Assembly: GCF_000154985.1 (NCBI RefSeq)
Contig: NZ_DS572694.1
Location: 360,587-424,586 of the forward strand
Reading direction: 5' to 3'
Source of the DNA: Streptococcus infantarius subsp. infantarius ATCC BAA-102
GTDB lineage: Bacteria > Bacillota > Bacilli > Lactobacillales > Streptococcaceae
DNA length: 64,000 nt
The notes beneath the pieces were generated by a model that was not told the origin of the DNA, did no database searches, and worked only from the letters and a program-made list of their open reading frames with translations. Below, piece after piece: positions 36,065 through 48,384 of the stretch; position 1 is the first letter of the stretch, and each line of letters starts with the position of its first letter. Position numbers and translations under genes: made by a program.

Positions 36065-37213
36065 CTAGGCCTTTTGTGTCTTTGCAAAATAATCTAAGAA
36101 ATAAAGAGCATTTTCCACAAAATACTGAACAGCCGTTGGAAGAGCCTCATCTTTTACCGTAAATGTATCATGATGAAGGTCTGCCGCATCAGCATCACCA
36201 TTACTTCCAATCAAGGCAAAAACACCTGGAATTTTCTCTTGATAAGCTGCAAAATCTTCCCCTATGGTGAGTGGTTCCACTTCTACGACTTTTGCAAATT
36301 GTTTTGAATGCTCAAAAATAAGAGGTGTCAAAATTTCGTCGTTAAAGGTCACCGTTGGGGTTCTCCCCCACTCAATCTCGACTGACGCATTAAATTGATC
36401 AGCTGTATTTTCCACAACCCTAGTGAAAGCATCACGCAAGTGCTGGCGAGTTTCTGGTGAAAATGAGCGCATTGTTCCTTCAAAATAGCCTGATTCAGGC
36501 ATAACATTCCAAGTACTTCCCACATCAATATGTGTTACCGACAAAACAGCTGACTCAAAAGGAGAGACTGTACGGCTGATAATAGCTTGCGCATTATTAA
36601 CAATTGTTGTGATAGCAAGAACCGTATCTGTACCAAAATCAGGGCGAGCCGCATGCCCACTCACCCCACTAACGGTCACTTTGAACTTATCGACGGCTGC
36701 CATGATAGCTTTTGAGCGCAGCCCGATTTCTCCAGGTTTCAAATGAGGATAATTATGATAACCAATAATAGCTGAAACATCCTTAAGACCGCCATTTTCA
36801 ATCACTTGATAGGCACCAACTGACACTTCTTCAGCTGGCTGAAAAATCAAGCGCACAGTTCCTTTTAGCTGCTCTTCTTTTGCTTTTAAAATCTCAGCAG
36901 CGCCTAAAAGACTAGTCTGGTGAAAATCATGCCCACAAGCGTGCATAGCGCTGTTCTGGCTGGCATAATCAAAGGTATTCTTCTCTTTGATAGGAAGAGC
37001 ATCAATATCTGCACGCAAAGCAATAACGGGCTTACCATGCCCAATTTCGGCAATAAAACCCGTTGGTAAATCTGTTTCAAGGATACGAATGCCCAACTTT
37101 GAAATATACTCCTTCAAAAAAGCAGTCGTCTCAAATTCATTCTCCGAAATTTCTGGATGTGCATGAATTCTACGACGAACCGCAGCTAATTTAGTATAAA
37201 AATCTGATGTCAT
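36065..37213 (-). CDS. M20 family amidohydrolase/peptidase
   Basis: A 382-residue two-zinc hydrolase of the M20D/amidohydrolase class (N-acyl-amino-acid or peptide amidase). The metal-site blocks are HAHPEISENEFET, ALRADIDALPIKE, AMHACGHDFHQTSLLG, FQPAEEVSVGA and GEDFAAYQEKIPG; the lid domain (SGHAARPDFGTD) is present. The substrate is not resolved. Context suggests scavenging of sulfur amino-acid conjugates. Its start overlaps the preceding broken binding-protein gene by four bases (ATGA type), so the two are translationally coupled. Confidence 0.9.
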   Translation of the reverse strand: MTSDFYTKLAAVRRRIHAHPEISENEFETTAFLKEYISKLGIRILETDLPTGFIAEIGHGKPVIALRADIDALPIKEKNTFDYASQNSAMHACGHDFHQTSLLGAAEILKAKEEQLKGTVRLIFQPAEEVSVGAYQVIENGGLKDVSAIIGYHNYPHLKPGEIGLRSKAIMAAVDKFKVTVSGVSGHAARPDFGTDTVLAITTIVNNAQAIISRTVSPFESAVLSVTHIDVGSTWNVMPESGYFEGTMRSFSPETRQHLRDAFTRVVENTADQFNASVEIEWGRTPTVTFNDEILTPLIFEHSKQFAKVVEVEPLTIGEDFAAYQEKIPGVFALIGSNGDADAADLHHDTFTVKDEALPTAVQYFVENALYFLDYFAKTQKA

Positions 37214-38014
37214 TTTGACTCCTCTATCGCTTGCTTATCTGGTAAGTAACTACCACCCAAATATTTATTACTCAACTTCTCTAAAGTGCCATTATCATAA
37301 AGCTTTTTAACCGCCTTATTAAATTCTCCTTGTAATTTACCACTGTCACTTGAAAAAATAATATAATTATTCGGGTTATCATCCGTTTGTAAATCAATCA
37401 CTTTTAAATCCAAAGCTTTTTGTTTAATAATCGTGTTAACGGATATCTTATCAAAAATTAAATAATCAAACTCTCCACTATCCAAGTCTAATAAGCGTTT
37501 TGCAACGTCCTCACCTGAATAATCAATCGTTGATGGCGAATCACTGTGTTTCTTATTCCAATCATCAACAAATTTTGCAGTTGATGTCCCAGTGTCATCT
37601 TGTGTCTTTTTACCACCAATATCATCTAAAGATTTAATCTTAGAGTCTTTTTTAGTAACTAAAACCAAAGGATTTTTAGCAATTGGAACAGAGTACAAAT
37701 ACTTACTAGCACGTTCTTTGGTATAAGAAATATTATTAGCAGCTACTTGGTAAATTTCACTATCGAGCCCGACAAAAATGGAATCCCAAGCAGTCTTTTT
37801 AAAACTAATATCATAGCCATCAATATACCTACTAGCTGATTTAATCACTTGAATATCATAGCCAGTCAGTTGACCTTTAGTATTTTGATAAGAAAAAGGT
37901 TTGATATCCCCTGCTGTGGCAACGACAGCTTTCTGATCAGCTGCCTCAACATGAACTGTCAGTCCTGCACTTAATAAAATAGTTAATCCTAATAAACTTT
38001 TTTTCTATTTTCAT
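37210..38014 (-). pseudogene. Amino-acid (cystine-type) ABC binding protein, frameshifted in the signal peptide
   Basis: Family-3 binding protein related to the gene at 35121-35960 (shared NNISYTKERASKYLYS block). The ATG at 38014 has a GAGG site, but the frame leaves the protein after five codons because of a seven-A run (T at 37998-38004). Six A would give MKIEKSLLGLTILLSAGLTV, a clean signal peptide without lipobox cysteine, continuing into the intact domain. It sits between the gamma-glutamyl hydrolase gene (20 bases) and the M20 gene (overlap). Either a true null or a homopolymer error. Confidence 0.8.
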
Positions 38015-41826: not shown

Positions 41827-41862
41827 GATGTGCTCCTATATTACGATTCTGACAGTCCTACT

Positions 41863-41891
41863 ATTATAACATACTTAGATATAATGAGAAA
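41863..41891 (-). promoter_or_regulatory. tmcAL promoter
   Basis: On minus: TTTCTC (41891-41886), a 17-base spacer ending in TGT, and TATAAT (41868-41863). The TGn before the -10 makes it an extended -10 promoter. Confidence 0.65.
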
Positions 41892-41922
41892 CACTTGTAA
41901 AATACTTAAATATATCAATTTA

Positions 41923-42786
41923 CTAACTATTCATTTGAAGCTTAACAACCATTTCTTGAACCAATTTTGATACTTCATCCAAACTAACAGCAAACCATTC
42001 ATTGACTGTAATTTCTTTTCCTGATGCTGATATAAGAGAAAGCTCTAAACGCTTATCAGCCAGAGCATGATGCAGGTAAGTTTCAACTTTTCTGGCATCT
42101 ATATTCTGAATTTCATAACTTGTAACTAATTTTACAGGTGAGTATAAATAAGTTGATTCATTTTCAGTATTCGATAATCTCTTTGTAATATCTTTTGCGT
42201 AACCAATCTTATAAAGATTTTCCATTTTTAAGAAACGTTCATCTTTTCCTGCATACTTAACAACATAAATATATCCTGTCGTGATATGCTTCTTACCCAT
42301 AATCTCTAAATCTTCGATTTTTTCAGTTACCAAACGACCATTTCTTTTTTTATCATAAAGAGAAGATACTAAACTAAGAAGCCAAATAAAGTTTTCAGTA
42401 CCATTTTCATACACTGTATGAACTTTGTACTTTCTGTCTGTACTTTCTGATACTTCTTGACCTGTCTCAGGATTATAAATTTTATCCACGTACAGCATTA
42501 CACCATTATCAATATAGAAATTTCCTTGTTTAATCGGACTCTTTTGACTAATTTCAACATCTGAAATATTACGTATTTGACGACTACCATCTGCCAAATC
42601 AGCCCTAACAGCCATAAAAAGATTTTTATAATAACTAAAATGATTTCCCATAGATTTACGCTGATGAGACTTGGTTTTGACACTAACAGTTCTTTTATAT
42701 CTTTTTGAATTAAAAAGTTTACTATCTAATTCTAGACCTTCAAAAAGGCTGTCATCAGATAAAATATCATCTAAATCATCGAACAT
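41923..42786 (-). CDS. GIY-YIG nuclease family protein (T5orf172-like)
   Basis: A 287-residue protein. Residues 1-160 have no domain I recognise, though the opening LDDILSDDSLFEGLE resembles the opening of the 92-residue protein at 43173. Residues about 165-260 are a GIY-YIG/T5orf172 domain: the first Tyr in TGYIYVVKY, the KIGYAKDITKRL core with the catalytic-type Arg, and a late Glu in ARKVETYLHHAL. It would be the nuclease of the island. The start has an excellent AAGGAGG site five bases away. It is separated from the upstream operon genes by the 386-base toxin-antitoxin-like insert, so it is probably expressed on its own. Confidence 0.82.
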   Translation of the reverse strand: MFDDLDDILSDDSLFEGLELDSKLFNSKRYKRTVSVKTKSHQRKSMGNHFSYYKNLFMAVRADLADGSRQIRNISDVEISQKSPIKQGNFYIDNGVMLYVDKIYNPETGQEVSESTDRKYKVHTVYENGTENFIWLLSLVSSLYDKKRNGRLVTEKIEDLEIMGKKHITTGYIYVVKYAGKDERFLKMENLYKIGYAKDITKRLSNTENESTYLYSPVKLVTSYEIQNIDARKVETYLHHALADKRLELSLISASGKEITVNEWFAVSLDEVSKLVQEMVVKLQMNS

Positions 42787-42925
42787 AAAATCCTCCTTCT
42801 AATAGATTTTCAAACTAAAAATCGAATTATTCAGTGTAGAGAAGCTACGACGGTGGTTCCAATACTTCCTAGGAGATGGTGCCTATGATAATAGACACAA
42901 AATCTGTTGGAAAAGAGGAACATTT

Positions 42926-43026
42926 TTGTCTGTTGCTGATGCACTACTAGTCATGATTGCTTTTGCAAGTTTCTTGTAGACTTGTTTGGCTTAGTAATAG
43001 TCATCATAACACTTAAAGACAAATAA
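42926..43026 (+). pseudogene. Holin-like (TxpA/Hol-Tox-type) type I toxin peptide with a one-base frameshift
   Basis: From TTG 42926, seven bases after GAGG, the plus strand encodes LSVADALLVMIAFASFL and then TAG at 42977. From 42976 the neighbouring frame continues VDLFGLVIVIITLKDK and stops at 43026. Restoring one base gives a peptide of about 34 residues with one membrane helix and a basic end, the layout of putative holin-like toxins in Firmicutes. The 3' end runs into a bidirectional hairpin and meets a convergent antisense RNA. Unless translation shifts frame, this copy makes only a short peptide. Too short for usual gene calling. Confidence 0.6.
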
Positions 43027-43133
43027 AATACCGTCATTGCTTTGGGACAGCTGACGGTATTTTGTACTTAAAACTGTAAACCACCGAAATGGCTCTACGA
43101 TGGAGCTGGATAATTATCTAGCTCCTTTTTTGT
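43020..43133 (-). ncRNA. Predicted antisense antitoxin RNA
   Basis: Downstream of the promoter at 43140-43168 a minus-strand transcript would start near 43133. It would form a 5' hairpin (arms about 43122-43127 and 43101-43106 with pairing inside) and end at the hairpin 43025-43063 followed by TTTTATTTG. Its length would be about 110 bases and it would overlap the 3' end of the toxin message. This is the arrangement of txpA/RatA-like type I systems. No expression evidence is available from sequence. Confidence 0.55.
43025..43063. terminator. Bidirectional terminator shared by toxin and antisense RNA
   Basis: A perfect 12-bp stem (43025-43036 with 43052-43063, 15-base loop) ending in T-runs on both strands. 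Confidence 0.85.
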
Positions 43134-43139
43134 AGTCTC

Positions 43140-43168
43140 AGTGTATCAAAATGATAATCATCTGTCAA
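43140..43168 (-). promoter_or_regulatory. Strong minus-strand promoter for the antisense RNA
   Basis: On minus: perfect TTGACA (43168-43163), a 17-base spacer, TACACT (43145-43140). It begins just after the stop codon of the 92-residue gene. Confidence 0.7.
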
Positions 43169-43172
43169 AAGA

Positions 43173-43451
43173 TTACTTTTTCAGTAATCCAAAAACATCA
43201 TAGTTTAGGTATTTTGACCAGTCTTCAGGTTTATTTCGAATGCCTTTGAGTCGTGAATATAATTTTCGTTCTTTCATATTACGCGACTTGGTTGGTTCTT
43301 TGCCATTCTCCCTGACCCATTCAACAATTTCTTGAAATTTTTCTATATCAGGATCAAGTCTATCAATTTTCTTCGGACGAATTTCTTTCACAAGTTCATC
43401 AAATGAACTATCTGCAAAAATATCTTCTAGTGTTGCGAAATTTTCAATCAA
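43173..43451 (-). CDS. Small protein of the methyltransferase-helicase island
   Basis: A 92-residue protein; no named domain recognised. Its second half (ENGKEPTKSRNMKERKLYSR) resembles the C-terminal end of the neighbouring helicase (AEFGRPPKKDSKDIGEQRLY), a helicase-associated-type motif. Its first residues, NFATLEDIFADSSFDELV, resemble the start of the GIY-YIG protein. It may therefore be the N-terminal part of a once-fused GIY-YIG protein cut off by the insert, or a small DNA-binding subunit. The start is TTG, overlapping the helicase stop by four bases (TTGA), so it is translationally coupled. Confidence 0.65.
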   Translation of the reverse strand: MIENFATLEDIFADSSFDELVKEIRPKKIDRLDPDIEKFQEIVEWVRENGKEPTKSRNMKERKLYSRLKGIRNKPEDWSKYLNYDVFGLLKK

Positions 43452-45367
43452 CTACTTTTCTCCTGTCTTAATCGAGCTAATGTTACCAATGCGTAATATA
43501 AACGCTGTTCGCCTATATCTTTAGAATCTTTTTTAGGTGGTCTACCAAATTCAGCTTTAAACGCTTTGATTTGAGGATAGAGCATTCGAAGTTCGTCGTT
43601 GGTAAACTCATATTTTTTAGCATCAAAAGCTCTTTCAATTAGCTGAAACGTTTTAGAATCAACATCACGTGAAATGACTTCATACGCTGATTGGAATGGA
43701 TTCACTTGGTCAATTAAATCTATTGATAAATCATCAATATTGATAAATTTATCAGCCATTTTAAGAAGTTGTTTATTCTCTGGATCTTTTTTAGCATTTG
43801 AAAGGTTCAAATCCACCACAACATGCTGACGAACCTCATCAACTTCTTCTTGTGTTAAATCAGGATAAGAAGTTGTAATAACTCGAGGAATGAGTTGCTT
43901 ATTAATAAGCTTAGTATCAGCACCCGCTGAAATTGCTGCTTGGACAACATCATCTTGTAAGATTGATGCTTTTAATTCAACCATATCATTTTCTATGATT
44001 TGTTTACTGCGTTCAGTTGATGGCTCTTTAAGTCCTTTAATATAAATATCAGCACCACTTGCTTTTTGGTCATCTCTATCTTTGGGTTTAAATTTAAATG
44101 ATGGTGCTAAAACATTTTCCATTAAAAGACTTGCAGTAATAGCCTTCATGATATTATTCACGGAATACTGAACTTCGTCACTTTCAGCATCTGGCTCAGC
44201 GATAAGATTTGTAAATACAGCTTCACTTTTATTAAAACTATCTCTAGTAACACGACCAATAATCTGAACAATTTCAGTCAAAGATGACCTATAACCAATC
44301 GTTAAAGCATATTCAGCATATGGCCAATCAAATCCTTCTTTTGCCATACCAAGCGCGATAATCATGTCTAAGTCTTCGACTTTATCCATTTTAGAAAGGT
44401 AGCCAGCCACACCATTTCGACCTTCTTCTGTAACCAAGTCAGCTATCTTCAAGATACGTCCTGTTTTCGTTTTTAGATAAATAATACCATGCTCATCTTT
44501 TTCTAGATAAGTTCCAAGTATATCTAAGATTTTGTCAACTTCTCCGTATTTATCTCTCGTTGACTCTACTGAATTGACATTAGGAATGTGGATAATTGTT
44601 TTCTTATCAATAAATTCTGGCACAAGCTCCTCAAGTGCTTCAAAATACTGTCCTCTGTAGAATTTATACGCCATAGCAAAGGATTTAAGGTATTTATAGC
44701 CTTCAAGTTGCTCATAATAAGTATAGGTCACTCGGTCAAATAGTTGTTCATCCTGAGTATCAAGAATAGGGATGCTATCACCTCTAAAATATGAACCTGT
44801 CATAGCAAAAATATGAGCTGTTGAATTTCTTAGAACATCTCGAAGAACTTCACCAAGAACAGAATTATCATCTTGAGATACATGGTGAAATTCATCGATA
44901 GCTAATAGACAATCATCAAAATCACTAGCATCTAATTGTTCCGAAGCAAAACGCAGTGTCGCATGCGTTGCGATTAAAATATCATCTGAAGGGTCAGTCG
45001 ACTGCATAAAATCGATAAATTTTTGCACCTTACTTTTTGCTGTACCAGAAGTTGTTAAGTTATTTTCGTCCTTGACTACCCAATCCCAGTAATAGCCAAA
45101 TTTTTTCAATTCAATAGAACGAAAAGATTTTCCAATAGATTTTTCTGGAACAGCTATGATTGCTTTCTTAAGCCCTTGATTCTTGAGTTTATCAAGAGCA
45201 ACAAACATCAAAGCACGAGATTTTCCAGAAGCAGGCGGCGCTTTAACTAGGAGATGCTGTTTTGTTCGCTTTTTGTAAACCTTAGCCTGCATTTCTCGCA
45301 TACCTAGTTCATTGGTATTCACAGAAGTTCCTTTTTGTTCATAGCTAATTTCAAAAACTTTACTCAT
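43448..45367 (-). CDS. DEAD/DEAH-box superfamily 2 helicase of the island
   Basis: A 639-residue SF2 ATPase like those of type I and III restriction enzymes. Walker A is KAPPASGKSRAL (about 42-53), the DExH box LLAIDEFHHVSQ, motif III AMTGSYFRG, and the C-terminal RecA lobe has ALGMAKEGFDWPYAEY and IIGRVTRDSF (motif VI). The C-terminal 60 residues carry a helicase-associated-type motif shared with the next gene. It overlaps the methyltransferase gene by eight bases. A role as ATP-driven translocase in a restriction or defence system is inferred from context. Confidence 0.85.
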   Translation of the reverse strand: MSKVFEISYEQKGTSVNTNELGMREMQAKVYKKRTKQHLLVKAPPASGKSRALMFVALDKLKNQGLKKAIIAVPEKSIGKSFRSIELKKFGYYWDWVVKDENNLTTSGTAKSKVQKFIDFMQSTDPSDDILIATHATLRFASEQLDASDFDDCLLAIDEFHHVSQDDNSVLGEVLRDVLRNSTAHIFAMTGSYFRGDSIPILDTQDEQLFDRVTYTYYEQLEGYKYLKSFAMAYKFYRGQYFEALEELVPEFIDKKTIIHIPNVNSVESTRDKYGEVDKILDILGTYLEKDEHGIIYLKTKTGRILKIADLVTEEGRNGVAGYLSKMDKVEDLDMIIALGMAKEGFDWPYAEYALTIGYRSSLTEIVQIIGRVTRDSFNKSEAVFTNLIAEPDAESDEVQYSVNNIMKAITASLLMENVLAPSFKFKPKDRDDQKASGADIYIKGLKEPSTERSKQIIENDMVELKASILQDDVVQAAISAGADTKLINKQLIPRVITTSYPDLTQEEVDEVRQHVVVDLNLSNAKKDPENKQLLKMADKFINIDDLSIDLIDQVNPFQSAYEVISRDVDSKTFQLIERAFDAKKYEFTNDELRMLYPQIKAFKAEFGRPPKKDSKDIGEQRLYYALVTLARLRQEKSS

Positions 45368-48113
45368 GTGTCATCTCCTTATAACGTTTGAGAAGGTGGC
45401 TAAGTCTTTCTTCATCAGAGTTGAAAGTTGTATCTTTATAAGCACGTTCGACAATTTCATCAAGTTTTTTATGAGCGTCACGTAAGCTATCTGGCATCGT
45501 ACCTTTGTGGTAAAGCTCAGCTAAGGTACCACCTAACTCCTCACGTAAATCTAATATCTCAAAGACTTGCTCTTCAATCATATTTTTACGTCTTGTCGAT
45601 AACTCCGGAACAGGGAAAGTATTGTAGACAAGCCCTGCAGAATAGCGATAACGAGTTTCAAGCCTACCACCAACAGCTCTCAGCCAAACCATGTGCATGC
45701 GAGATTCAAGCAAACCTAAAAGCCAGATGGGAGCATTGTAAATAACATATGCAGAATTTGAAATAATAGTATCTTCACCAACAAATCCCATTGGCACGTA
45801 ATCACGATTCTCAGAAGATGTACCAGGAACAAGGATTTGCAAGAACTCATCTTCACCAGAAGCTTTAAAAGTGGCGTAAGCCTCGTCGTAACGATTACGT
45901 TCAACAAAAGCATATGGATACTCTGCAGCCCTTTGCGTATCAGCTTTTTTACTAGCTAACCTCATAACTTTTACAGCTTCAACCCTTTTTTTAATCTCTG
46001 GTAAATGTTCAACAGCACAATAATCAGTTTTATCTAGCCAGAAAACATAACGTGATTTTCCATTAATAAACTCTTCACTGCCAATATAAGTCCTAATATA
46101 GTTTTGAAGTTCGGAATAATTTGCACACAAACTTCTCTTTTCCTCTAATGTATCAATAATTAGATGACCGCCATCTCGTGGCATATTCCCAAAGACCATC
46201 TTAGGAAGTCCATTTAATGGTTGTCGTTTTTTCTCTACAATAATATTTTCACCACTTGCTAAGTATGCATTAATATTATTAACAGTTAGTCTAGCTAGAT
46301 TCTTATCAAAAATATACTTATCAGATTTACTATTGTCTTCATTTGCTAATCCTACAATGGCAACCGTAACTCCTGCATTATTAGCAGCACTATTTCCCCA
46401 TTTAAAGGATGTATAAGCAAAATCAATAGTTGCCTTAGTCAGTAATTCTTTCCAGATATAAGAAACTTGTTCTCCTTGAAAAATAGAGTTAGTCGTTACA
46501 AAAGCCAGTTTACTGCTTGCAGAATTAATAAAATCAACACCTTTGAAGAACCAACCAGCTATATAATCCATTAATTTATATTTGAAAGGTTCTCCAATCG
46601 CTCCTTTCAAATCTTCCTTTTGTTCTTTATTTTGCAGTTTTGCTCCAATATAAGGTGGATTTCCAATGAGATAAATCTCATCGTCGCTTTGATGTGGTAA
46701 AATTTCATTCCAATCTAAGCGCAAAGCATTTCCTTGTGTGATATTTCCCGCATCACGTAAAGGAAGAAAAGCAGATTTTAAATTAATTTCATTTTCCGCT
46801 TCTAAATTCATCTGATATTCAGCAATCCATAAAGATAATCGAGCCACTTCATGAGCAAAATCATCTAACTCAATTCCATAAAATTGATTCAGACTTATTT
46901 TAGAGGTTTCAAAGAAATCAATTGTTCCATCTTGTCTCAACTCACGAAGTGATTTTAGAATTTTAACCTCTAAACGTCGAATTTCTTTATAAGTGATGAT
47001 AAGAAAGTTTCCAGAACCACAAGCTGGATCAAGGAATTTGATATTAGAGATTCTATCCAAAAGACTTTCAAGTTCACGAATGAAAGTATTACGATTTTCA
47101 CATCTAGTCTTATCGGTAATATCCTTGTCTTCGTTTTCATTGATTTTATCAACAAGATTTTGATAACTTGCTGTTAAATCGTCAAGAAATAAAGGTTTAA
47201 TGACCTTCATTATATTTTCAACACTAGTGTAGTGCATACCAGAAACAGAACGTTGTTCCTTACTAGCCACAGTCTGAATCATGGCTCCTAAAATATCAGG
47301 ATTGATTTCATTCCAATTCAGCAACTCACCTGCTTCAATAATCAGCTTTCTTGTTTTTCTATCAAATACAAGCGCCGTATGAGCTTTTGTGAAAAGTTTA
47401 CCATTAACATATGGAAATTCTTGAAGCCATTTTTCCTGACTAGAACGATTAGCAACATCCAAACTTGCAAAAATCTTATTAATCAAATTATCTAAGTCTG
47501 AGCCATCTTCAGCTGAACGAGTCTTGATAGCATTTGTAAAAATACCTTTGGGCATAATCTCTGTATCTTCCGCAAAAAGAAGGAAGAGTAACCGAATCAA
47601 GAACAGATTAAACTCTTTTTCCTCTGTTGTCTGATCAGAAAACTGATTAATCTGACGAAGTTCATCATATAGACGCGTGAATCGTGCAGCAGCTTTTATA
47701 TCAGCCGGATTTTCTTTGGCATAATCTACCTTCTCAACACCATTCCATGGTAAAAAGAAGTCAACATAAGCAGGCAAGTCTTTTAAAGAAATATTCAATG
47801 TATCAGCCGTTTGAATATCTTTGGCAGCAAGCTCCTCAAAATCAGTCGCAATTAAAATACGAGGTTTAGATTTCTTACTAGATAAAGCTTTTTCCATTTC
47901 AGCTACTTTTGCTACTACAGACTGTCCTTGACCAATAACTTCAAATAAGGCTTTATTTTTCACTTCATTTCCATTATTCTTACGTAGTCTTGTTAAAGTT
48001 GCTTTAGGAAAATCATACAGCCCCAGAAAATCATAGAAAAAGCCAGATTCATCTAAGTTTTCTAATAGCTCTTTTGTTTTATCCTCAATAGAAACAATAT
48101 CTAACTTAGCCAT
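45360..48113 (-). CDS. MmeI-like class I DNA N6-adenine methyltransferase
   Basis: A 917-residue DNA methyltransferase. Residues 1-150 correspond to the MmeI-type N-terminal region, but I see no clear PD-ExK nuclease motif there. A helical spacer follows; SAM motif I is FLDPACGSGNFLII (about 359-372) and catalytic motif IV is GNPPYIGAK (about 483-491), typical of gamma-class adenine enzymes. The C-terminal 350 residues should hold target recognition. It is the first gene of methyltransferase-helicase-small protein. It is probably the modification subunit of a multi-gene restriction system whose nuclease is supplied separately. Confidence 0.88.
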   Translation of the reverse strand: MAKLDIVSIEDKTKELLENLDESGFFYDFLGLYDFPKATLTRLRKNNGNEVKNKALFEVIGQGQSVVAKVAEMEKALSSKKSKPRILIATDFEELAAKDIQTADTLNISLKDLPAYVDFFLPWNGVEKVDYAKENPADIKAAARFTRLYDELRQINQFSDQTTEEKEFNLFLIRLLFLLFAEDTEIMPKGIFTNAIKTRSAEDGSDLDNLINKIFASLDVANRSSQEKWLQEFPYVNGKLFTKAHTALVFDRKTRKLIIEAGELLNWNEINPDILGAMIQTVASKEQRSVSGMHYTSVENIMKVIKPLFLDDLTASYQNLVDKINENEDKDITDKTRCENRNTFIRELESLLDRISNIKFLDPACGSGNFLIITYKEIRRLEVKILKSLRELRQDGTIDFFETSKISLNQFYGIELDDFAHEVARLSLWIAEYQMNLEAENEINLKSAFLPLRDAGNITQGNALRLDWNEILPHQSDDEIYLIGNPPYIGAKLQNKEQKEDLKGAIGEPFKYKLMDYIAGWFFKGVDFINSASSKLAFVTTNSIFQGEQVSYIWKELLTKATIDFAYTSFKWGNSAANNAGVTVAIVGLANEDNSKSDKYIFDKNLARLTVNNINAYLASGENIIVEKKRQPLNGLPKMVFGNMPRDGGHLIIDTLEEKRSLCANYSELQNYIRTYIGSEEFINGKSRYVFWLDKTDYCAVEHLPEIKKRVEAVKVMRLASKKADTQRAAEYPYAFVERNRYDEAYATFKASGEDEFLQILVPGTSSENRDYVPMGFVGEDTIISNSAYVIYNAPIWLLGLLESRMHMVWLRAVGGRLETRYRYSAGLVYNTFPVPELSTRRKNMIEEQVFEILDLREELGGTLAELYHKGTMPDSLRDAHKKLDEIVERAYKDTTFNSDEERLSHLLKRYKEMTHE

Positions 48114-48384
48114 GATTCACCTCACAATTTAGAAGTGAACAACGCAAAAAGCCTGCCATTTTTTCTGACAGGTTAATTTTTATATTTAGTTTACTTTTTA
48201 TTACATTATGCGTAGCATTGATATATATATATATATACAGCCGCAAGGGTTTTCGCCATTTTTGAAGCTCCTTAAAACTTTTAATTTATTATTATTTTAC
48301 CGCATTTTATAAAAATTGTCTGCGTAAATTAAAAAAGAAGGTGATACTATTATTTCAATAGATAACCTTCTTTTTATTTCTCCC
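48114..48384. other. Promoter/leader region of the methyltransferase operon with an AT dinucleotide tract
   Basis: This gap holds an (AT)n tract of 17 bases at 48221-48237. Closer to the gene is a hairpin (about 48154-48174) followed on minus by TTTTTGCG, resembling an attenuator in the operon leader. At the far end is the terminator of the gene at 48385. The exact promoter is not clear; TTGCGG and the AT tract at about 48245-48221 are one option. Confidence 0.5.
48333..48375. terminator. Terminator after the methyltransferase gene at 48385
   Basis: A long dyad, with AAAGAAGGT pairing to ACCTTCTTT plus an inner ATACTATT/AATAG part, flanked by A and T runs, so it can work in both directions. 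Confidence 0.8.

What the first reader, a model, noticed from the sequence alone, without database searches (positions are those of the whole stretch)
42831..43145. Unannotated type I toxin-antitoxin-like module inside a methyltransferase/helicase/nuclease island
Seen: on plus, a frame from TTG 42926 encodes LSVADALLVMIAFASFL and, after a one-base shift at 42976, VDLFGLVIVIITLKDK with stop at 43026. A 12-bp perfect bidirectional terminator follows directly. Facing it on minus is TTGACA-17-TACACT (43168-43140), giving an RNA of about 110 bases that overlaps the toxin 3' end and ends at the same hairpin. Known: this tail-to-tail layout with a membrane peptide of about 30 residues is that of txpA/RatA and holin-like type I systems. 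Inference: an addiction or phage-abortive module nested in a defence cassette.
Basis: partly seen in the sequence, partly recalled or inferred. Interest (0 to 1): 0.85.

Follow-up and report, generated by a model that had tools for sequence, protein, structure and literature searches.

The report
Broken toxin with surviving RNA antitoxin
A small bacterial toxin-antitoxin pair sits inside a gene cluster that probably defends against viruses; here the toxin gene is broken while the RNA that would silence it looks intact, and relatives suggest how the toxin's messenger RNA folds back to keep itself quiet.

Summary
Window 42831-43145 is a diverged, decayed member of the known rli28/RatA (TxpA/SprG-like, "holin-like") type I toxin-antitoxin family. 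Streptococcus equinus ATCC 9812 has the same island and locus (93% identity) with an intact toxin frame that passes the Pfam Hol_Tox cut-off; the window's frame is broken. The facing minus-strand RNA sits where RatA sits in relatives: in 147 Streptococcus genomes, 87 of 108 RatA hits lie beside a Hol_Tox frame on the opposite strand (median gap 34 bases). The window scores below Rfam's curated cut-offs for rli28 and RatA. This predicts a 5'-3' fold-back of full-length mRNA, with RatA and the leader competing for the same 3' tail; I saw no report of it in my searches. The island is a recurrent four-gene cassette (MmeI-like enzyme, helicase, 92-aa protein, GIY-YIG nuclease); of the 21 places compared, only the window and S. 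equinus carry the module between genes three and four. An addiction or abortive role is unproven and, with this toxin broken, unlikely in this strain. New member of a known kind.

The parts
42836..42858 (+). Leader of the toxin mRNA: GTAGAG (42836-42841) and CGGTGGTT (42851-42858), near-copy of a block in the facing RatA RNA
   Evidence: homology with other genomes begins here
42815..42994 (+). Rfam rli28 (RF01492) match, full model length, 40.6 bits (gathering 45)
42885..42950 (+). Small upstream frame starting at ATG after a ribosome-binding-like site; frame relative to toxin not conserved in the family
42926..42979 (+). First piece of the broken Hol_Tox-like toxin frame, TTG start, preceded by GAGG at 42915-42918
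42976..43026 (+). Second piece of the broken toxin frame, in another frame, stop 43024-43026
43025..43063 (.). Shared hairpin (12-bp arms), predicted bidirectional terminator
   Evidence: aligned in relatives
43020..43133 (-). Predicted RatA-like antitoxin RNA (Rfam RatA at 43143-43058 only 18.3 bits; own profile of relatives E 1.3e-11 at 43176-43019)
43079..43098 (+). 3' tail block AACCACCG ... CTCTAC, complementary to the leader; predicted fold-back partner
43102..43131 (+). Second plus-strand terminator-like hairpin with T run; on minus it is the 5' hairpin of RatA
43140..43168 (-). Antitoxin promoter TTGACA-17-TACACT
41923..42786 (-). GIY-YIG nuclease (T5orf172/MUG113), gene four of the host cassette
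43173..43451 (-). 92-aa protein, gene three of the cassette
43448..45367 (-). DEAD/ResIII helicase, gene two
45360..48113 (-). MmeI-like type IIG restriction-methylation enzyme, gene one

Best explanation
The locus is a decaying rli28/RatA-type (TxpA/SprG-like) type I toxin-antitoxin module set between genes three and four of an MmeI-like defence cassette in the S. equinus lineage. Shown by homology: a TTG-started Hol_Tox membrane peptide on plus (intact in S. equinus, broken here) and a RatA-like RNA with its own promoter on minus, tail to tail, sharing a hairpin. Supported by covariation but not by experiment: the full-length plus mRNA reads through the shared hairpin to a second terminator, and its leader pairs with its 3' tail. 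Inferred: this closed mRNA is poorly translated; RatA is antisense to that tail and also carries a copy of the leader, so RatA and leader compete for the same tail, and the RatA duplex is cut by RNase III as described for B. subtilis txpA. In this strain no full toxin can be read, the toxin promoter is weak, and RatA is probably still made; at most it could silence an incoming intact cognate mRNA.
For: S. equinus has the same locus (93%) with rli28 over its cut-off (50.6 vs 45 bits) and an intact Hol_Tox frame over its cut-off (34.1 vs 23.3 bits); the window's pieces are 94% and 88% identical to it. RatA faces Hol_Tox in 87 of 108 RatA hits. TTG is the codon at profile position one in 49 of 60 relatives. 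Minus promoter 10 of 12; 37 of 60 relatives score 10 or more against 28 of 1200 shuffles. Leader/tail: 0 of 10,000 permutations, 0 of 20,000, 0 of 10,000 in a set from the whole order; 41 of 45 full-length RNAs fold back, window included.
Against: The window is below both Rfam cut-offs (rli28 40.6 vs 45; RatA 18.3 vs 49, E 5.6), and its two toxin pieces score weakly on their own (14.3 and 11.0 bits, E 0.021 and 0.22). No transcript data. The S. equinus RNA folds back only partly (6 pairs in the minimum-energy structure), and one base of its leader block departs from its RatA block. Relatedness can inflate permutation tests. Divergence from S. equinus does not differ between toxin side and antitoxin side (11 of 190 vs 6 of 147 substitutions, p 0.62), so selective retention of the antitoxin is not shown. 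Where the plus mRNA ends is predicted only.
Confidence: 0.8

Rival explanations
1. The frame break is a sequencing or assembly error and the window holds an ordinary intact rli28/RatA module.
For: The sister copy in S. equinus is intact; the window's own assembly or reads could not be checked.
Against: None direct. The rest of the cassette is open in the window, so errors are not common there; the weak plus promoter fits a silent gene, but S. equinus shows a similar upstream sequence.
Confidence: 0.15
2. The module is a guard of the defence cassette: the toxin gene lies antisense in the cassette's operon, so RatA and operon transcription keep it silent and loss of the cassette releases it.
For: Placement between two co-directional genes that are close together in the other cassettes; in 3 of 20 cassettes Hol_Tox frames (4 hits) lie in the fetched stretch, against about 0.23 hits expected from 30 over-cut-off hits in the 19 genomes, about 40 Mb. 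CreTA is a known RNA guard of CRISPR-Cas (PMC12737573, passages).
Against: Toxin broken in the window; 17 of 20 cassettes have no over-cut-off Hol_Tox hit in the fetched stretch; small numbers, and mobile regions cluster anyway; no functional data. The shared hairpin might also end operon transcription before the nuclease gene.
Confidence: 0.1
3. The remaining RatA is a selected anti-addiction RNA that protects against elements carrying an intact cognate toxin.
For: RatA side has 2 substitutions and 1 gap in 108 bases against S. equinus; 21 of 108 RatA hits have no Hol_Tox hit within 250 bases.
Against: No significant difference in divergence between the two sides. Of the 20 unpaired RatA places looked at (of 21), promoter scores range 6-11, with 8 of 20 at 10 or more, and only one shows an obvious toxin-like remnant by a crude motif: inconclusive.
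Confidence: 0.15
4. A chance assembly of a hydrophobic frame, a hairpin and a promoter-like site.
For: Promoter-like sites in 42000-44000 are at chance frequency (9 found, 8.5 expected).
Against: Homology at the same locus in S. equinus and in more distant genomes.
Confidence: 0.01

Closest known systems
rli28 / BsrH-like frame / ratA on Listeria plasmids pLM80, pLM7802, pLM5446 (PMC9484302, passages seen)
   Same: rli28 RNA overlapping a small toxin-like frame, with RatA on the other strand; proposed there as a possible type I pair
   Different: Window copy has a broken frame, lies in a chromosomal restriction-type cassette, and its RatA is a diverged variant; the leader copy inside RatA is not mentioned in the passages I saw
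rli28 and RatA about 60 bp apart in Streptococcus agalactiae prophages (PMC6064168, passages seen)
   Same: Same two RNA families side by side in the same genus
   Different: Prophage setting; no toxin frame described in the passages seen
txpA/RatA of Bacillus subtilis (PMC4147584, PMC8167048, passages seen)
   Same: Convergent transcripts overlapping at the 3' ends, small membrane toxin, RNase III-dependent control
   Different: There RatA is said to have no complementarity to the toxin start region; here RatA holds a covarying copy of the mRNA leader
sprG1/SprF1 (PepG1) of Staphylococcus aureus (PMC8167048, passages seen; NCBIfam match of an intact relative)
   Same: Related peptide family (L003 peptide matches PepG1 at 31.4 bits, E 1e-07) and 3'-overlapping antitoxin
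   Different: Match is below the curated cut-off of 70 bits; two in-frame starts there, TTG start here
AapA/IsoA of Helicobacter pylori (PMC6733600, passages seen)
   Same: 5'-3' long-distance closure of the toxin mRNA
   Different: Unrelated toxin and antitoxin; there closure is shown by experiment, here only predicted
CreTA of CRISPR-Cas loci (PMC12737573, passages seen)
   Same: Toxin-antitoxin pair nested in a defence locus
   Different: CreT acts as an RNA and is repressed by Cascade; no guard function is shown here

Membership tests
Hol_Tox (PF16935) toxin | One open frame over the curated Pfam cut-off (23.3 bits) | tested here: not met
   Window frame is broken; its pieces score 14.3 and 11.0 bits on a profile of relatives, not Pfam's. 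The S. equinus copy meets it: 34.1 bits.
rli28 (RF01492) | Rfam gathering score 45 bits | tested here: not met
   40.6 bits, full model length; S. equinus copy 50.6 bits.
RatA (RF01776) | Rfam gathering score 49 bits | tested here: not met
   18.3 bits, E 5.6, full model length. A sequence profile from 60 relatives finds it at E 1.3e-11.
Type I toxin-antitoxin, txpA/RatA layout | Small membrane-peptide gene facing an antisense RNA gene, overlapping at the 3' ends, each with its own promoter | tested here: inconclusive
   Layout, shared hairpin and minus promoter present; plus promoter weak; no transcripts available.
Type I toxin-antitoxin, txpA/RatA layout | Toxicity of the peptide and its neutralisation by the RNA | not testable with these tools
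   Needs experiments; the window's frame is broken.
Fst/par (pAD1) type I system | Direct repeats that make leader and antisense RNA complementary (feature as told in PMC4147584, passages) | tested here: not met
   The repeat is inverted: leader and RatA carry the same sequence.
5'-3' long-distance closed toxin mRNA (hok/AapA type) | Leader-tail complementarity conserved by covariation | tested here: met
   predicted folding in 41 of 45 RNAs.
5'-3' long-distance closed toxin mRNA (hok/AapA type) | Translationally inert full-length mRNA activated by 3' trimming | not testable with these tools
   Needs RNA end mapping and translation assays.

The most novel reading that the evidence does not exclude
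In the S. equinus lineage a type I toxin gene was placed antisense inside the operon of an MmeI-like defence cassette. Its mRNA is held shut by a leader-tail fold-back and is silenced both by RatA and by the operon's own transcript, so loss of cassette transcription would release the toxin. The module would then guard the defence system, as CreTA guards CRISPR-Cas, and the window shows a guard that has been disarmed.
Probability: 0.1. Interest if true: 0.8.

Novelty: new member of a known kind. Interest (0 to 1): 0.5.

Why it matters
The locus itself is a decayed member of a known family. The wider result is more useful: the antitoxin RNA RatA contains a covarying near-copy of the toxin mRNA's own first bases, in Streptococcus and in loci drawn from the order. 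That predicts fold-back control of toxin mRNA in a common Gram-positive family and gives a direct test with a reporter. It also supports reading the Rfam 'rli28 sRNA' as leader and start of a toxin mRNA, which bears on studies that treat rli28 as a regulatory RNA, for instance one in which removal of an rli28 copy raised growth of Lactobacillus casei (PMC8249650, passages seen).

Tried and rejected
Fst/par-type regulation: rejected, the repeat is inverted, not direct. The upstream ATG as toxin start: rejected, its frame relative to the toxin is not fixed (14/11/10 among 35 of 60 loci where it was found). Stronger constraint on the antitoxin than on the toxin: not shown. Orphan antitoxins as support for a protective role: 20 of 21 looked at, inconclusive. 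Phage records: no DNA match to 42800-43180 at E 0.01. Plasmid records: one, Lactococcus raffinolactis pWiKim0068-1, annotated putative holin-like toxin. Nearest held genome G001: no match to the locus and no helicase match. Structure prediction, fold search and the covariance-model tools were not used.

Full report
Check of the observation. The frames, hairpin and minus promoter are in the sequence at the given coordinates. Promoter-like sites by themselves are at chance frequency there (9 found, 8.5 expected); the evidence is comparative. A DNA search with 42800-43180 finds matches in 10 of 59 related genomes at E up to 0.01, the best at 6.3e-12, 1.1e-11 and 1.0e-8; the weaker ones are short and may be chance. 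In plasmid records the one match is annotated putative holin-like toxin; phage records gave none. Rfam gives one match up to E 1 in 42500-43500: rli28 (RF01492), full model length at 42815-42994, 40.6 bits against a gathering score of 45.

An intact copy exists at the same place. It carries the island, and 42782-43200 aligns at 93% (395 of 424). There rli28 passes its cut-off (50.6 bits) and the peptide passes the Pfam Hol_Tox cut-off (34.1 against 23.3 bits). The window's two pieces, aligned apart, are 94% and 88% identical to that protein. So the window copy has a broken frame where a sister copy is whole. Whether the break is real or a sequencing error cannot be told here, since the window's own assembly is not held.

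Family. Hol_Tox matches occur in 50 of 147 Streptococcus genomes (47 over the cut-off), rli28 in 43 of 147 (41 over) and in 102 of 198 genomes drawn from the order (98 over), RatA in 51 of 147 (43 over). Of 108 RatA hits, 87 have a Hol_Tox hit within 250 bases on the opposite strand, median gap 34 bases; 21 do not; and 30 of 117 Hol_Tox hits have no such RatA hit. S. equinus (G061) is among those 30. In a scan of 20 loci, 13 hold rli28 and RatA facing each other over their cut-offs. In an alignment of 21 antitoxin regions the window shares a shorter second hairpin with S. equinus and two other loci, which fits its low RatA score (18.3 bits against 49). A sequence profile from 60 relatives, without the window, finds the window at E 1.3e-11. 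That rli28 overlaps a toxin-like frame and faces RatA was noted for Listeria plasmids (PMC9484302, passages), and the nearness of rli28 and RatA for S. agalactiae prophages (PMC6064168, passages). The kind is known.

Start and promoters. TTG stands at the first profile position in 49 of 60 fetched relatives (60 of the 87 pairs), so the window's TTG start is normal. An SD-ATG some 40 bases upstream was found by pattern in 35 of 60, in no fixed frame to the toxin (14/11/10). The minus promoter scores 10 of 12; in the 60 relatives scores are 8 to 12, 37 of them 10 or more, against 28 of 1200 shuffles at 10 or more. The plus promoter is weak in the window (best 7 of 12; relatives 5-11). In the 28 of 60 relatives with a plain GTAGA start pattern the -10 hexamer matches 6 of 6 in 19, 5 in 7 and 4 in 2; the window matches 4.

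A fold-back that covaries. The first bases of the toxin mRNA (GTAGAG and CGGTGGTT, 42836-42858) reappear inside RatA, so they are complementary to the plus-strand tail 43079-43098. Over 51 non-redundant loci of 62 (60 relatives, S. equinus, window), the leader-tail duplex energy averages -42.0 within loci, -39.4 between loci and -32.2 for shuffled tails; 0 of 10,000 permutations reach the own value. For the six-base block, 45 of 62 loci had both motifs found by pattern (17 dropped); 30 of 45 contain it exactly; in 34 distinct pairs the own identity sum is 188 against 162.0 (sd 3.6), 0 of 20,000. Variants change together: GTAGAA, GCAGAA, ACAGAG, ACAGAC and, in the window, GTAGAG. There are exceptions, for example RatA GTAGAG with leader GTAGAA in two loci, and one row (L171) took a wrong leader place. 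In loci drawn from the order (30, of which 2 skipped and 22 non-redundant), own energy is -35.0 against -29.5, shuffled -20.7, 0 of 10,000. Of 45 full-length RNAs folded, 41 fold back with 8 or more leader-tail pairs in the minimum-energy structure; the window does, S. equinus does not (6 pairs, though 11.7 expected in the ensemble). Relatedness can inflate permutation tests, and RNA ends are predicted. The reading: full-length mRNA ends at the second terminator (43102-43131), its leader pairs with its tail, and RatA, antisense to the tail and a near-copy of the leader, competes for it. Reviews describe RatA of B. subtilis acting at the 3' end through RNase III, without complementarity to the toxin start region (PMC4147584, PMC8167048, passages). 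Long-distance 5'-3' closure is described for AapA (PMC6733600, passages). My searches (listings, plus the passages named) showed no report of it for rli28/RatA; most subscription papers are not in that library.

Island. The neighbours are an MmeI-like type IIG enzyme, a DEAD/ResIII helicase, a 92-aa protein without a family over a cut-off, and a GIY-YIG nuclease. The helicase is found in 19 of 284 Streptococcus genomes at 20 places, and all 20 fetched places carry all four genes. One of the 20 is S. equinus. In the other 19 the tblastn ends of the 92-aa gene and the nuclease lie 12-70 bases apart (14 printed; five at 46 bases by the coordinates). Among these places and the window, the window and S. 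equinus alone have the module there. Over-cut-off Hol_Tox hits lie in 3 of 20 fetched stretches (4 hits; S. equinus, G442 with two, G135), against about 0.23 hits expected by my arithmetic from 30 such hits in the 19 genomes (about 40 Mb; about 0.31 Mb fetched). A RatA-like hit alone lies near a fourth (L106). Numbers are small and mobile regions cluster, so this is suggestive only. The cassette lies at the same chromosomal place in the window, S. equinus and G014.

State in this strain. No full toxin can be read and the plus promoter is weak; RatA and its promoter look intact. Against S. equinus, divergence does not differ significantly between the toxin side and the antitoxin side (11 of 190 against 6 of 147 substitutions, one indel each, p 0.62). 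A leftover module is the simplest reading; a protective role for the remaining RNA is possible but unproven.

Noticed in passing
window 41923-48113: Four-gene cassette (MmeI-like enzyme, DEAD/ResIII helicase, 92-aa protein, GIY-YIG nuclease) recurs as a unit at 20 places in 19 of 284 Streptococcus genomes: a candidate defence system; the MmeI-like enzyme differs more between window and S. equinus (83%) than its neighbours (94-98%).
   Followed up: partly
window 41827-48384: The stretch between the ylbM/tmcAL-like gene and the class I SAM methyltransferase gene looks like a cargo hotspot: G001 holds a different 448-aa frame there (L205 2666-4012), while S. equinus and G014 hold the cassette.
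   Followed up: partly
window 37210-37848: Substrate-binding-protein-like frame of 212 aa with a GTG start, against a 266-aa frame in S. equinus: its 5' part looks disrupted in the window.
   Followed up: no
L109 12441-13300: Two toxin-antitoxin modules of this family in tandem next to the MmeI-like gene of another cassette.
   Followed up: no
L011 1501-2092 (G015): Leader, shared hairpin and a RatA-like RNA are kept but no toxin frame is seen between them, and a second, canonical RatA follows.
   Followed up: no
L003 1529-1636: The intact toxin relative also matches NCBIfam ComI (competence inhibitor) weakly: 18.8 bits, E 0.0011, cut-off 55.
   Followed up: no
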